Origin: Urbifossiella limnaea
GTDB taxonomy: Bacteria > Planctomycetota > Planctomycetia > Gemmatales > Gemmataceae
DNA: 64,000 nt
Assembly (NCBI RefSeq): GCF_007747215.1
Contig: NZ_CP036273.1
Coordinates: forward strand, 4,820,322-4,884,321
Reading direction: 5' to 3'
This document shows, in pieces, positions 31,045-36,793 of the stretch. Made by a program: the position numbers and the translations under genes. Under the pieces are notes generated by a model. That model made no database searches and was not told where the DNA came from. It saw nothing but the letters and a program-made list of their open reading frames with translations. Within the stretch, counting starts at the first letter, position 1. The number at the start of each line of letters is the position of its first letter.

Positions 31045-31896
31045 TCACCGCCACAGCCACTTCAAGCTATCCGGCAGGATCACGCCGCCGTGGCGGCCGT
31101 TGTGCCCGCCGTCGCCGTACACCAGGCGGTAGTCGTAGCTCATGTGCCGCAGTGCCGCGGCCATGCTCAGGTTCGCGAGCGGCCAGTGGCCGTGCAGGTT
31201 GTCCAGGTCGCCCGACCCGTCCTGCAGGAATACCCGGATCGGCTTCCGCTCCGTCTTGCGGATCAGGCCCGGGTACACGTCCCCCCCGCGGATGTTGGTG
31301 AAGCTGCCGACGTGGCTGAGCACCTTCGAGAAAAGGTCCGGCCGTTCCCACGCCGCGGTGAACGCGCAGATGCCGCCGGAACTAATACCGCAGATCGCAC
31401 GACCGGCCGCGTCCTGGCGTAGCTTCACGGTTTTCCCCACCTCCGGGAGAAGCTCTTTCTCCAGGAAGCCGGCATACTGGTCGGAAAGGGTGTCGTACTC
31501 GAAGCTCCGGTTGGAGCGGCCCTTCCCGCCGCCCTCGGCCGGGAACGTGCCGGGGTTCACGAACACCGCCACCGTGACGGGCATTTCCTTCCGATGGATG
31601 AGGTTGTCGAACACGACCGGCACCCGGTACTGGCCCTTCTCGGCCACGTAAGAACCGCCGTCCTGAAAGACCATCACGCACGCCGGCTCCGCCTCCCGGT
31701 ACTGGGCCGGCACGTACACCCAGTAGTCGCGCTCGGTGCCGGCGAACACCTTGCTCGGCAACTTCAGCGGGCCGGTGACGGAGCCCTTCGGCACGCCCGG
31801 CTGCCATTCCGAGTCGGGGCCGAGGGTGTAGTCGTCGGCCGCCGGGGCGGGCACGGCGGCGAGAGCGAGTGCGAGCGCGGGTACGAGGCAGCGCAT
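31045..31896 (-). CDS. Secreted esterase (enterochelin esterase/EsteraseD-like fold)
   Basis: A 283-residue alpha/beta hydrolase. The signal peptide is [19 protein letters not shown]. The nucleophile elbow is GISSGG, preceded by a conserved FQDGG and [11 protein letters not shown] pattern seen in Fes/YieL-like esterases. The His is in [12 protein letters not shown] near the C-terminus. Those enzymes hydrolyse siderophore or sugar esters; here the substrate is unknown. ATG 31896 gives a clean signal peptide and follows an AAAGG site, whereas an in-frame start at 32082 would run into the divergent kinase gene. Confidence 0.82.
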
Positions 31897-31937
31897 CGGA
31901 CGGGCCTTTCGCGGGGAGAGGGGACGGGGCCAAGCGT

Positions 31938-33701
31938 ATGGACACGGCCCCCGCCCCGCCAGCGCCGCGGGGCCCGGCCGTGAACACGCCCCACCCCGAC
32001 GAGCGCCTCCAGCGGGCGCTGGACAAGTTCCTGACCAGGGGCGGGCCGTTCGTCCTCCCGGAGGGGCCGCCGCCGACCGCACTCCTCCCCGCGCCGCCCG
32101 GCGGGCTGCCGCCGGACACGAAGCTGAACGCGGCCCTGCCCACGCCCGCGGTCATCCCCCGGCCGGCCCCGCGCGAGCCGTCGCCGACGCCGATTCCGGG
32201 CGCGTCGCGCGCCGTCGTCACGACCGACGCCGTGCTCGCGGGGCTCGACCACGTGGTGTGGTCGGTGTCGCCCGACGGGGCTCTCGTGTACCTCCTCGGC
32301 GGCCCCGTCGAGCGACTGTTCGGCCACCCCGCCGAGTTCTTCCTCGACAAGTCCGACGGCTGGCTCTCCGCCCTCCCCGACGACGACGCCGACCGCCTCC
32401 GCGCCGCGTTCGCCGGCCTCTCGGCCGCCGGGTCGTTCGTCGTCGAGCACACCGCCGGCGGGCGGCGCGTCGTGACGCGTGGCCGGTTGCTGCTCCGCCC
32501 CGACGGCCGACCGATACGCGTGGACGGGAGCACAACCGAACTGACGGAGACGGCCACCGAGCGCGAGTTGCGGGCGAAGCTGGCGGTTGCCGAAGAGGCG
32601 CTGCGGGCGACGGCGCGGCTCGGCACCCTGGGACGACTGGTGAGCGGCGTGGCCCACGACTTCAACAATTGCCTGACGGTCGTGTCCGGGAACGCCGAAC
32701 TGCTCCGCGAACTGCTGCCGGCCGACGACCCGCTCCGCGACACGGCCGGCGAGATCGTCGCGCACGTGGCGTCGGCGGCACTCGTGGCCCGACAGTTGGT
32801 GGCGTTCGGCAAGCCGACGGGGGCGTGCTCGGGCCCCACCGACCCGGCCAACGAGATCCGCGTTCTGGACCGGCTTCTGCGACGGCTCACGGGCGAGGAC
32901 ATCACACTCGACGTGCTTCTCGCCCCCGGCGTTCCGCCGATCCCGGTCGGCGCCGGCTCGCTGGCGCAGGTGGTGCTCAACCTCGTCGCCAACGCCCGCG
33001 ACGCCATCCCGCGCCACGGCACGGTGACGCTTCGCGTTGCTGAGGCGGTCGTCGATCGCGCCCGCGAGGGCTGGCCCGAGGGCCTACCCGCCGGGCGGTA
33101 CGTGGCACTGACGGTAGCGGACACCGGCGTGGGAATGACGGAGGCGGTGCGGGCGCGGATGTTCGACCCGTACTTCACGACGAAGGGGCCTGCCGGGAAC
33201 GGCGTCGGCCTGGCGACCGTCGCGGAGATCGTGCGGACCGCCGGCGGGCACATCGAGGTGGAATCGGCGGCGGGGTGGGGCACGAGTGTGCGGGTGTTCT
33301 TCCCGCCGGCCGACTACCCGCCCGCGGTCGTGCCGCCGACGGCACCCGAGGCGCCGCCGCGGCCTGCGACGGTGCTGCTAGTGCAGGACGCGACGCGCGT
33401 CCGCGACCTGGCCGCGTCGGCGCTTCAGCACGCCGGGTATCGCGTGCTGGAGGCCGACGACGGGGTCGCCGGCGAGGAACGGGCGCGGCTGTACGCCGGG
33501 CCGATCGACCTGCTGGTCACGGACGTCGGCCTGCCGAAGCAGGACGGCCGCGAGTTGGCGTCGGCCCTGCGGGCGGCGCGGCCGGGGCTGCGGGTGCTGT
33601 TCGCGTCGGGCTCGGCGGCCGAGGTGCCGGGGCCGCTGCTTCCGAAGCCTTACACTCCTGCCGAATTGTTGGCCGCTGTGCGGCTGTTGCTGGATGGTTG
33701 A
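31938..33701 (+). CDS. Hybrid sensor histidine kinase with C-terminal receiver
   Basis: A 587-residue protein without membrane helices. A Pro-rich leader (1-90) precedes a PAS-like domain (about 95-205, [22 protein letters not shown]). The dimerisation helix carries the phospho-acceptor His240 in [10 protein letters not shown]. The ATPase domain shows N box [11 protein letters not shown]1 DTGVGM and G2 [10 protein letters not shown] receiver domain (478-585) has Asp529 in LVTDVGLP and Lys in LPKPYT; only one acidic residue is seen in the first pocket (LLVQD). It probably signals to a separate output regulator not found here. Confidence 0.88.
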
Positions 33702-33738
33702 TCATCCCGCAGCGTGGTCACTTCTGGTAGTATCAAGC

Positions 33739-34041
33739 ATGTCCGGCCGAGTGTTCTTTGACGTGGATCCCGGCCCGCTCCGGCTCCCGCGCGAGCGGAT
33801 CGACGGGGCCGACCCGGGAAAGCTCCAGTGACAGATCGCCCGGCACGGCCGGTCACTCGCCGGCATGCCGCCGGTGTACGTGTACCGCGGGTCGGACGGC
33901 GAGTTGCTGATCGCCGACGGCGTGACCCGGGCGACGCGTGCCGCCAAGCTCTGCCCCGGCGTGCCGATCCCCGCGGAGTTGCTCGGCGTGCGACCATACC
34001 CCATCCGGCACCTGCCGACCGTTCAGGAGAAGTTGCCGTGA
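33739..34041 (+). pseudogene. ParB-like small protein interrupted by an in-frame TGA
   Basis: From ATG 33739 the frame reads MSGRVFFDVDPGPLRLPRE through GADPGKLQ, meets TGA at 33829-33831, then continues in the same frame as QIARHGRSLAGMPPVYVYRG, then DGVTRATRAAKLCPGV, to TGA 34039. The two parts together form one 100-residue ParB/sulfiredoxin-like fold that I know from planctomycetes and cyanobacteria, where Arg usually fills the stop position (CGA to TGA would be one change). No Shine-Dalgarno is seen; TAGTAT five bases before ATG could be a leaderless -10. The stop overlaps the next start (GTGA). Confidence 0.65.
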
Positions 34042-34247
34042 ACCCGACGTCGCACGACGAGTTGGTCGAGGCTCTCGCGGAACTTCGCCAGGCGCTGCCG
34101 TCGCTTCGGCTGGGGCAGTTGGTGGCAAACCTGGCGACCGTGGCCCGCGGGCCCGAAGCGGGGGTTGTGTGGGACGTGAATGACGACGAACTCCTTGCCG
34201 CGGCCCGCTGGCAGCTCGCCCAGCTGACGCAGCCGGCGGCGTCGTAA
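34038..34247 (+). CDS. Small partner protein of the ParB-like module
   Basis: A 69-residue helical protein with GTG start at 34038 overlapping the stop of the interrupted gene. The sequence runs as one helical hairpin (LVEALAELRQALPSLRLGQLVANLATVA) followed by VVWDVNDDELLAAARW. I recall this pairing of a ParB-like 100-residue protein with a roughly 70-residue protein of the RLGQLVANLA...WDVxDxELLAAA type in several planctomycetes. Function unknown. With the upstream stop, its translation would rely on re-initiation or independent entry. Confidence 0.7.
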   Translation: MNPTSHDELVEALAELRQALPSLRLGQLVANLATVARGPEAGVVWDVNDDELLAAARWQLAQLTQPAAS

Positions 34248-34257
34248 GGGGACGCGG

Positions 34258-35667
34258 TCAAAACACGAAATAGATGAACGGCCGCCCGGCCGCCGGGCCG
34301 AGGGTGACGAGCAGTACCACGATGCCGACGTAGCAGGTGGCGCGCACCGCCGGGGGCAGGTCGAGCAGCCGGCACGTCGCGCCGCGAAGCCCGCTGAAGC
34401 CGTGCCCCAGCGCCACCAGCGCCACCAACCCCGGCACCCAGACCGGCACGCCGTCGGCGACCACACCGAACGCGCACCACGACCGCAGCAGAAGCTCACC
34501 ACTCGCCCAGTCCGGCATCCGCACCACCACCATCCCCGCGACCGTCAGCCACAGCGTGACCCCCCACGCGACGAAGGCCCACGCCCGGCTGCCGCGAACC
34601 GCATCGGCCCACGGCACGCCCGTAAGGGTGCGGTCCCAGGCGCGGTGGGCGCACACCAGCAGCCCGTTCCACACCCCGAAAGCGAGCCACGCCCACGCCG
34701 CGCCGTGCCACAGCCCGCAGGCCACGAACACGATCATGACGTTCCGGTACGCCCGGAGTCCGCCCCCGCGGCCGCCGCCGAGCGGGACGTACAGGTAGTC
34801 GCGCAGCCACGCCGACAGCGACACGTGCCAGCGGCGCCAGAAGTCGGGCACGCTCGTCGCCAGGTACGGGAAGCGGAAGTTCAGAGGGAGTGTGAACCCG
34901 AACCACAGCGCCAGTCCGACCGCGATGTCGGAGTAGCCGCTGAAGTCGCAGTAGAGCTGCGTCGCCCACGCCAGACACGCCCAGCGGTGCTCCGCCGGGC
35001 CGAACGCGGCCGGGTCGGCGAACACCGGCGACACGACCAGCGCGTCCAGCTGGTCGGCGATGAGCAACTTCTTGAACAGCCCCAGGAGCAGGAAGTGGAG
35101 CCCGTCCGCCGCGTGTCGGGCGGTGACCGCCGGCGGCGTTGCCATCTGCGGCAGGAACTCGGCGGCGCGCACGACCGGCCCGGCAGCGAGTTGCGGGAAG
35201 AACGACACGAACAGGGCGTAGTCGAGCGGCGAGCGGACGGCGCGGACGGCGCCGCGGTACACGTCCACGGTGTACGCGATCCCCTGAAACGTGTGGAAGC
35301 TGATCCCGAGCGGCAGCAGGATGTCCCACGCCCGGGCGGGGAGCGGGCCGCCGAGTGACACCACGTTGTCGTAGATAAACGCCGTGTACTTGAAGGCGAC
35401 GAGCAGGCCGAGGTTCGCCGCGACGCTGGCGGACAGCCAGCGCCGGCGGGCGCGACCGGTGGCGGCGTCCTCGATGCGGACGGCGGCGACGTAGTCGATC
35501 GCAGTGCAGAGAAGGATGACCCACAGGTACTGGGGGCTGAGCCAGGCGTAAAAGAGCCACCCGGCGGCGAGCAGGACGCGGTACTTCGGCGCGCGGCCGC
35601 GGGCGGCGTGGTACAGCACCAGCACCGCCGGCAGGAACAGCCAGAACGCCTTCGTGGCGAAGACCAC
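34258..35667 (-). CDS. MBOAT-family O-acyltransferase (AlgI-like)
   Basis: A 469-residue polytopic membrane protein with about ten helices. Family marks are PLGISFHTFQGIAYTVDVYRG, FPQLAAGPVVRAAEFLPQ, the DFSGYSDIAVGLA block, and the catalytic His in CGLWHGAAW. AlgI-type proteins carry acetyl groups across the membrane for transfer to an extracytoplasmic polysaccharide by an SGNH partner, which is encoded immediately upstream. GTG 35667 is chosen because GGAGG lies five bases before it; ATG 35715 would overlap the upstream gene. Confidence 0.92.
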   Translation of the reverse strand: MVFATKAFWLFLPAVLVLYHAARGRAPKYRVLLAAGWLFYAWLSPQYLWVILLCTAIDYVAAVRIEDAATGRARRRWLSASVAANLGLLVAFKYTAFIYDNVVSLGGPLPARAWDILLPLGISFHTFQGIAYTVDVYRGAVRAVRSPLDYALFVSFFPQLAAGPVVRAAEFLPQMATPPAVTARHAADGLHFLLLGLFKKLLIADQLDALVVSPVFADPAAFGPAEHRWACLAWATQLYCDFSGYSDIAVGLALWFGFTLPLNFRFPYLATSVPDFWRRWHVSLSAWLRDYLYVPLGGGRGGGLRAYRNVMIVFVACGLWHGAAWAWLAFGVWNGLLVCAHRAWDRTLTGVPWADAVRGSRAWAFVAWGVTLWLTVAGMVVVRMPDWASGELLLRSWCAFGVVADGVPVWVPGLVALVALGHGFSGLRGATCRLLDLPPAVRATCYVGIVVLLVTLGPAAGRPFIYFVF

Positions 35668-35683
35668 CACCGCCTCCGTGCGG

Positions 35684-36793
35684 TCAGCGTGCGAGTTCGT
35701 CGCGCACCCGGTCACTCAGCCGCGCCGCGCCGCGCCGGTTCAGGTGGATCACGTCCGCGAAGTCCGCGTCCGTCAGTCCCGCGGCCGGGCGGAGCACGCG
35801 CACGCCGCGGTCGCGCTCCAATTCGGTCAGCCGGGCACGGTACTCGGCGAACGCCGCAGGGTACGCCGCTTCCAGGTCCGCCGTCACCGGCACGTCGAGC
35901 AACAGCAGTTCGGTTCCGCCGTCGGCGCACCAGTCGATCAGGCGGTGGAGGTACTTCAGGTGCGAGCCGGTGCGGTAGTTCTGCAAGAACGGGAACGCCT
36001 GCGGCCGCACACCGGCCGCCTTCGCGGCGTCGTAGCGACCCGCCGCGAACCCGCGGGCCGGCACGTAACCGTTCCCCGCCCGCAACAACACGGCCCGTTC
36101 GCGCAGCTCGTCCGCCTCGCGGAACGCCTCCGGCGCCTGTCCGGGAAACACCTCCTCGGCCCGGCACGCCGCCCACATGCGGATGCCGTGGCGGTATTGC
36201 ACGAGGTTCGACACCCTCGCCGCGCGCCCTTGTAGGAAGTGCCGCGACACCCACTCGGCTGAATCGGGGCGGAGCCGAATCCAGTCGATCCAGTCGCCCC
36301 AGGTCATGAGCGAGTGCGGGCCGTGCGGCTCGTTGCGGCCGTCGTTCAGGTCGGTGGCGGTGATGCCGTACACGAGCACCCGCGGCTGGGTCGGGCACGC
36401 CCGCAGCACCGCGTGGTACACGTCCGAGGTTGTCGCTCCGGAGAGACCCACGGCGTAGGCGGAACGCAGTTCCCGCCCGTCGCGGACGACCCCGGCGACG
36501 CGGCCGGGGTCGATCCCCTCGGCGACCGGCGACCCGCCGACGAACACCAGGTCGCGCGGCTCGCGGGCGCAGGCCGTGACTCGGGCGGCGTAGTCGTCCG
36601 GGGAGTGCCGTTCCCAGACGTGCGCGAACCGGCCGACGAGGACGTCGGCGAGCAGCAGTAGAGCGGCGAAGTATACGAGCGTGCGGTGGCGGCGCAGAAA
36701 CCCCTCGCGGGCCGGCGGTGCGACCACGACCGTGGCGCGGACCGTCGGCGTGTGTCGGCCGAAGGGCGTCGTCTCGGTCAGCACGCGGGGCAC
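35684..36793 (-). CDS. Membrane-anchored SGNH-hydrolase-like partner of the MBOAT protein
   Basis: A 369-residue protein. A Pro/Arg-rich N-terminus leads to one helix (TLVYFAALLLLADVLVGRF, about residues 37-57), then an extracytoplasmic domain. SGNH-like marks are GGSPVAEG (possible nucleophile Ser), GLSGATTSDVYH, and DVIHLNRRGAARLSD near the C-terminus with the expected Asp and His. It ends 16 bases before the MBOAT start and is co-directional, matching AlgI-AlgX/AlgJ style pairs that O-acetylate a glycan. GTG 36793 has a GAGGG site seven bases upstream. Confidence 0.75.
   Translation of the reverse strand: MPRVLTETTPFGRHTPTVRATVVVAPPAREGFLRRHRTLVYFAALLLLADVLVGRFAHVWERHSPDDYAARVTACAREPRDLVFVGGSPVAEGIDPGRVAGVVRDGRELRSAYAVGLSGATTSDVYHAVLRACPTQPRVLVYGITATDLNDGRNEPHGPHSLMTWGDWIDWIRLRPDSAEWVSRHFLQGRAARVSNLVQYRHGIRMWAACRAEEVFPGQAPEAFREADELRERAVLLRAGNGYVPARGFAAGRYDAAKAAGVRPQAFPFLQNYRTGSHLKYLHRLIDWCADGGTELLLLDVPVTADLEAAYPAAFAEYRARLTELERDRGVRVLRPAAGLTDADFADVIHLNRRGAARLSDRVRDELAR

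What the first reader, a model, noticed from the sequence alone, without database searches (positions are those of the whole stretch)
33739..34041. In-frame TGA inside an otherwise intact ParB-like gene that is coupled to a small partner
The frame is coding-like on both sides of TGA 33829-33831 and continues to a natural stop overlapping the next gene (GTGA). From memory, relatives carry Arg at this position (CGA), so one transition explains the stop. It could be a recent pseudogene, an assembly error, or programmed read-through/re-initiation producing two pieces. The partner of 69 residues remains intact, so the module can be tested for function without its first half.
Basis: partly seen in the sequence, partly recalled or inferred. 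Interest (0 to 1): 0.55.

Follow-up and report, generated by a model that had tools for sequence, protein, structure and literature searches.

The report
Broken ParB-like gene beside intact partner
A small ParB/sulfiredoxin-fold gene of a planctomycete carries one recent premature stop codon while the little gene joined to it stays whole, and across its bacterial class this unnamed gene pair breaks in the same lopsided way, as expected if the first gene is costly and the second protects or is useful alone.

Summary
The in-frame TGA at 33829-33831 is real. It interrupts a conserved family of ~100-residue proteins whose predicted fold is ParB/sulfiredoxin-like. In 36 other members collected the residue is Arg in 28, never a stop. 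Other nonsense copies in the class carry their stops at other codons, so this is ordinary decay, not a programmed signal. The window copy keeps every invariant residue, and its lineage evolved under strong purifying selection (omega about 0.04), so the stop is recent (or a sequencing error, which I could not test). The Shine-Dalgarno site of the partner lies in the last ParB-like codons and is intact, so the partner can still be made.

Beyond the finding: the pair is a patchy cassette, unnamed in Pfam and NCBIfam, mostly in Planctomycetota, with a 4-base ATGA/GTGA overlap. Decay is lopsided: among 146 distinct partner genes held, 72 follow a ParB-like gene without visible lesion and none of those 72 is broken; 55 intact partners follow a broken or undetectable ParB-like gene, often keeping only its last 8-10 codons. 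I read it, tentatively, as a toxin-antitoxin-like or immunity-like module that has lost its costly half here. Biochemical function is inferred, not shown.

The parts
33739..34041 (+). ParB/sulfiredoxin-fold gene, interrupted (100 codons plus stop)
   Evidence: fold of the closest intact relative in the alignment
33829..33831 (+). premature TGA at codon 31 (Arg in 28 of 36 other members)
34025..34029 (+). AGGAG Shine-Dalgarno-like site of the partner, inside the last codons of the ParB-like gene, 8 bases before GTG; GGAG-like sites recur there in relatives
   Evidence: read by eye from the listed 71 upstream sequences
34038..34041 (+). GTGA stop/start overlap of the two genes
34038..34247 (+). 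intact partner, 69 residues, predicted all-helical

Best explanation
A recent nonsense mutation has inactivated the first gene of a two-gene cassette. The ParB-like protein now ends after 30 residues, before most of its fold; the partner is still open and has its own Shine-Dalgarno site, so it is probably still made though no longer translationally coupled. Shown: the stop, the conserved family, the lopsided decay across the class, the retained partner and its start site. Inferred: that the cassette works like a toxin-antitoxin or toxin-immunity pair, the ParB/sulfiredoxin-fold protein being the costly (toxic) part and the small helical partner its antagonist, so that the first can be lost while the second stays, but not the reverse. 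Which chemistry the ParB-like protein performs (nucleotide-dependent phosphotransfer, or nuclease) is open.
For: Family, position and Arg. Stops of six other nonsense copies at other codons (about residues 12, 12, 27, 32, 46, 95). Window branch omega 0.044, omega=1 rejected (2dlnL 11.6, p 7e-4; part after the stop 5.3, p 0.02; partner 10.7, p 0.001). Decay table over 146 partner genes. ParB-like tail with partner start site kept in about 30 of 50 loci lacking most of the gene. The own genome shows several states: the nonsense copy, an intact pair at 5421286, a 58-residue fragment at 7722205 without partner, a partner alone at 6326520. Fold; ParB profile match of the intact paralogue L002, E 2.1e-4.
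Against: No toxicity, interaction or expression data. The partners of loci that lost the ParB-like gene are still under purifying selection (omega 0.082 against 0.059 in paired ones), which a pure antitoxin of one lost toxin does not need; the partner may have a use of its own. A sequencing error would give the same picture for this one codon. The genome encodes tRNA-Sec and SelA, so UGA decoding is not excluded by machinery alone.
Confidence: 0.6

Rival explanations
1. Pseudogene in a module that is not toxin-antitoxin: the partner is an independently useful small protein (for example a regulator), and the ParB-like gene is an optional accessory that needs the partner to work.
For: Partners without a ParB-like gene mostly stay open (37 open, 9 broken) and keep low omega; one follows an HNH endonuclease ORF plus ParB-like tail; in L038 the partner protein is extended by a Cys_rich_CPCC domain.
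Against: Does not by itself explain why no lesion-free ParB-like gene has a broken partner, though obligate dependence would.
Confidence: 0.3
2. Sequencing or assembly error: the gene is intact in the organism.
For: One codon differs, all other invariant residues are kept and selection was purifying.
Against: The genome is a single 7.8-Mb contig; decay of this family is common, so a real stop is not surprising.
Confidence: 0.08
3. Programmed decoding of UGA (read-through or selenocysteine) making full-length protein.
For: tRNA-Sec and SelA are in the genome; a hairpin lies downstream of the UGA.
Against: Residue is Arg/Gln/Leu/Met/Lys in 36 of 36 others, never Cys; hairpin z-scores only -0.7 and -1.8, and its apical loop lacks the early G that I recall from bacterial SECIS elements; no Rfam match in 33300-34600; stops in other copies lie elsewhere.
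Confidence: 0.01
4. Re-initiation: the stop overlaps a GTG (33828) in the frame of the partner, giving a 139-residue extended partner, or the ATG at 33865 gives a C-terminal piece.
For: Both ORFs exist.
Against: The partner frame is open for 70 or more codons upstream in 12 of 71 intact relatives as well, so the long frame is ordinary; the ATG at 33865 encodes the conserved Met of the GMPP motif and a piece from there lacks invariant N-terminal residues.
Confidence: 0.02

Closest known systems
ParB N-terminal domain / sulfiredoxin superfamily (ParB, Noc, Srx, SerK, SbnI)
   Same: Predicted fold of an intact 80%-identical relative matches Srx, ParB and SerK chains: Foldseek best E 4.4e-4 (2rii), VIA-align Z up to 9.1 (2hwj) and 8.1 (6ky4); DGVTRATRAA motif where ParB has GERRxRAA in a weak profile alignment (hhalign E 0.017 over 61 columns); PHROG ParB-like partition protein hit of L002, E 2.1e-4.
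   Different: Single domain of ~100 residues, no further domain; no Pfam or NCBIfam family over cut-off; no conserved Cys, whereas sulfiredoxin has an active-site Cys (recalled).
Tox-ParB and Tox-ParBL1 of polymorphic toxin systems (PMC3482391; section on ParB domain toxins read in full, other passages seen)
   Same: Small ParB-fold domain next to a small partner gene; that paper gives a conserved DGHHR motif, comparable with DGVTR here.
   Different: Stand-alone gene, not the end of an RHS or filamentous protein; Pfam matched the partner to no immunity family over cut-off (the paper names Imm20, Imm27 and SuFu for Tox-ParB); no recurrent delivery genes in 80 loci.
Type II toxin-antitoxin modules
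   Same: Tiny overlapping gene pair, patchy, multi-copy, first gene lost more readily than its partner.
   Different: No known toxin or antitoxin family over cut-off; toxicity untested.

Membership tests
ParB/sulfiredoxin superfamily | ParB/Srx fold | tested here: met
   Model pLDDT 96; in the 50 Foldseek rows and 36 VIA rows shown, nearly all are ParB/Noc/KorB, Srx, SerK/SbnI or ParB-like entries. Z of 7 to 9 is moderate.
ParB/sulfiredoxin superfamily | Sequence profile of ParB N-domain (PF02195) over cut-off | tested here: not met
   1 of 26 members hits ParB_N at E 0.19, none over the cut-off
Sulfiredoxin (as enzyme) | Catalytic Cys | tested here: not met
   No conserved Cys in the 26 aligned members
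Tox-ParB polymorphic toxins | C-terminal domain of a secreted RHS/FilH protein | tested here: not met
   Stand-alone ORFs of about 100 residues; no recurrent neighbour among 80 loci
Toxin-antitoxin module | Paired overlapping genes | tested here: met
   69 of 71 intact loci overlap by ATGA/GTGA
Toxin-antitoxin module | Toxin not kept without antitoxin | tested here: met
   0 of 72 partners behind lesion-free ParB-like genes are broken; ParB-centred, 3 of 74 have no partner: two at contig ends, one with degenerate ends
Toxin-antitoxin module | Toxicity relieved by partner | not testable with these tools
   needs expression
Selenoprotein | UGA at a position that is Cys in homologues, with SECIS | tested here: not met
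   36 of 36 other members have no Cys there; hairpin not significant

The most novel reading that the evidence does not exclude
A new, unnamed toxin-antitoxin-like or immunity cassette, mostly in Planctomycetota, in which a minimal ParB/sulfiredoxin-fold protein is the toxin and a small helical protein its antagonist, with the antagonist's ribosome-binding site written into the toxin's last codons so that toxin deletions are selected to spare that tail and leave a working antagonist.
Probability: 0.35. Interest if true: 0.6.

Novelty: new variant of a known kind. Interest (0 to 1): 0.36.

Why it matters
The stop codon itself is ordinary gene decay. The useful result is the pattern: an uncharacterised, widespread gene pair whose first gene is repeatedly broken while the second survives with its start signal. 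That makes a concrete, cheap test (is the ParB-like protein toxic alone?) and would add a ParB/sulfiredoxin-fold effector to the known conflict modules.

Tried and rejected
Programmed read-through, selenocysteine and re-initiation: see rivals. RelE-like gene upstream of the partner in L234: suspected by eye, no Pfam family at E 0.001, dropped. Partner fold: no PDB match at E 0.001 or better; Pfam gave only sub-cut-off hits. Mobile-element origin: no relatives in plasmids or phages by tblastn nor in viral contigs; no recurrent neighbours in 80 loci beyond the pair itself and a few families in 4-5 loci each (greedy ORF choice, so antisense ORFs of the pair also appear). Site: the five other genomes of the genus have an MBOAT orthologue, but none of the five fetched stretches holds the kinase or the pair beside it; I did not locate an empty site. 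PADLOC: none for 4 proteins. Promoters: none found. PDB by sequence profile: no ParB-fold hit. Literature: searches (listings seen); only PMC3482391 was opened (passages, one section); no paper describing this pair was seen, but those six searches are all I did.

Limits: one search's match list was cut; nine contig-edge rows are left out of the Fisher test, loci L043, L166 and L298 give two rows each, and 3 of the 72 lesion-free ParB-like genes showed no in-frame start codon; loci are phylogenetically related, so p-values are rough; the background contains real tails, so its p-values floor near 0.03 for clear tails of middling score, and 2 of 52 loci (L261, L295) had no start and were dropped; one search used 22 partner-only or partial loci and 22 of 69 paired ones, chosen by hand, and terminal branches include time before the loss; synonymous sites are near saturation; L085 was dropped because its partner runs off the contig.

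Full report
Observation. The frame 33739-34041 is open except for TGA 33829-33831 and ends in a natural TGA overlapping the GTG start of a 69-residue gene, 34038-34247. The window lies in a single-contig 7.8-Mb genome, and the relatives found are mostly Planctomycetota, several Gemmataceae, by the titles. The neighbours are a hybrid histidine kinase, 31869-33701 (+), and an MBOAT acyltransferase, 34258-35715 (-).

Family. A search with X at the stop found matches in 26 of 99 genomes, own included and, with a 26-row profile, in 60 of 397 genomes of the class. The best whole-gene matches are uninterrupted: 80% identity in G048, 73% in G004. Across the alignment 14 columns are invariant, six of them N-terminal of the stop, and the window copy keeps all of them. 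Residue 31 is Arg in 28 of 36 other members, otherwise Gln, Leu, Met or Lys.

Fold. An alignment-based AlphaFold2 model of the 80%-identical intact relative (pLDDT 96) matches sulfiredoxin, ParB and free serine kinase. Sequence profiles agree only weakly: hhalign with planctomycete ParB domains E 0.017 over 61 columns, PHROG ParB-like hit for L002 at E 2.1e-4, no Pfam or NCBIfam family over cut-off. So 'ParB-like' holds at the level of fold, not of the ParB partition family. The partner is predicted all-helical without a convincing fold match.

Is the stop programmed? Six other nonsense copies carry their stops at about residues 12, 12, 27, 32, 46 and 95; the one at 32 is the next codon to ours and a different change (TAG at Gln). 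Further copies are frameshifted or truncated. The genome does encode tRNA-Sec (ARAGORN) and SelA, so I tested selenocysteine: no homologue has Cys there, and the hairpin after the stop is not significant (z -0.7 and -1.8). Read-through is very unlikely.

Age. A codon model on eight taxa gives omega 0.044 on the window branch and rejects neutrality (p 7e-4), also for the part after the stop (omega 0.039, p 0.02); the partner has 0.093 (p 0.001). The stop is therefore young relative to that branch, or an error.

Partner expression. In 69 of 71 intact loci the genes overlap by ATGA or GTGA. The listed upstream sequences show a GGAG-like site inside the last ParB-like codons in most (read by eye); the window has AGGAG at 34025-34029.

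Lopsided decay. Joining, 91 of 106 ParB-like loci have the partner directly downstream, and 57 of 150 listed partner rows have no ParB-like hit. After fetching most of these loci, 146 distinct partner genes were classified: 69 behind an intact ParB-like gene plus 3 behind one without a visible start codon, all 72 partners intact; 18 intact behind a stopped, frameshifted or partial one; 37 intact with none detectable; 10 broken, all behind a partial or undetectable ParB-like gene; 9 at contig edges. Fisher p 4e-4. Counted from the ParB-like side, 3 of 74 lesion-free genes have no partner: two at contig ends and one with degenerate ends. About 30 of 50 partners without a detectable or complete ParB-like gene still follow its last residues (such as PKIGDLLP) with the overlap, which fits selection to keep the partner's start signal.

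Against a simple toxin-antitoxin reading: partners that lost the ParB-like gene stay under selection (omega 0.082; paired 0.059; equality not rejected, 2dlnL 3.7; omega=1 rejected by 91 lnL units). They may guard against paralogues or have a role of their own. In L038 and L043 the partner is part of a longer protein; in L038 the added part includes a Cys_rich_CPCC domain.

Verdict. The finding is a recent pseudogene, ordinary in itself, inside an unnamed cassette that deserves a direct toxicity test.

Noticed in passing
G000:C1:161043-161136 (L306) and G000:C1:3820884-3821966 (L320): The window's genome encodes tRNA-Sec (anticodon tca) and SelA, so it probably makes selenoproteins.
   Followed up: partly
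L038, L043 (G023:C627, G043:C25): The partner occurs inside a longer protein with a second partner unit; in L038 a Cys_rich_CPCC domain (PF14206, E 6.9e-26) follows.
   Followed up: partly
L108, L109, L111, L121, L155: Relatives of the ParB-like protein in MAGs labelled Terriglobia, Binatota, Acidobacteria, Bryobacterales and Hydrogenedentota: lateral transfer or MAG contamination.
   Followed up: no
L238 (G114:C15): An HNH endonuclease ORF (PF01844, E 1.4e-8) precedes an intact partner that keeps only the ParB-like tail.
   Followed up: partly
L003 (G000:C1:7722205): In the window's own genome a third copy is cut after about 58 residues, followed at once by an M28 peptidase gene; the partner is gone.
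   Followed up: partly
L237 (G000:C1:6326520): A partner in the same genome overlaps by ATGA with a different, unidentified small ORF upstream.
   Followed up: no
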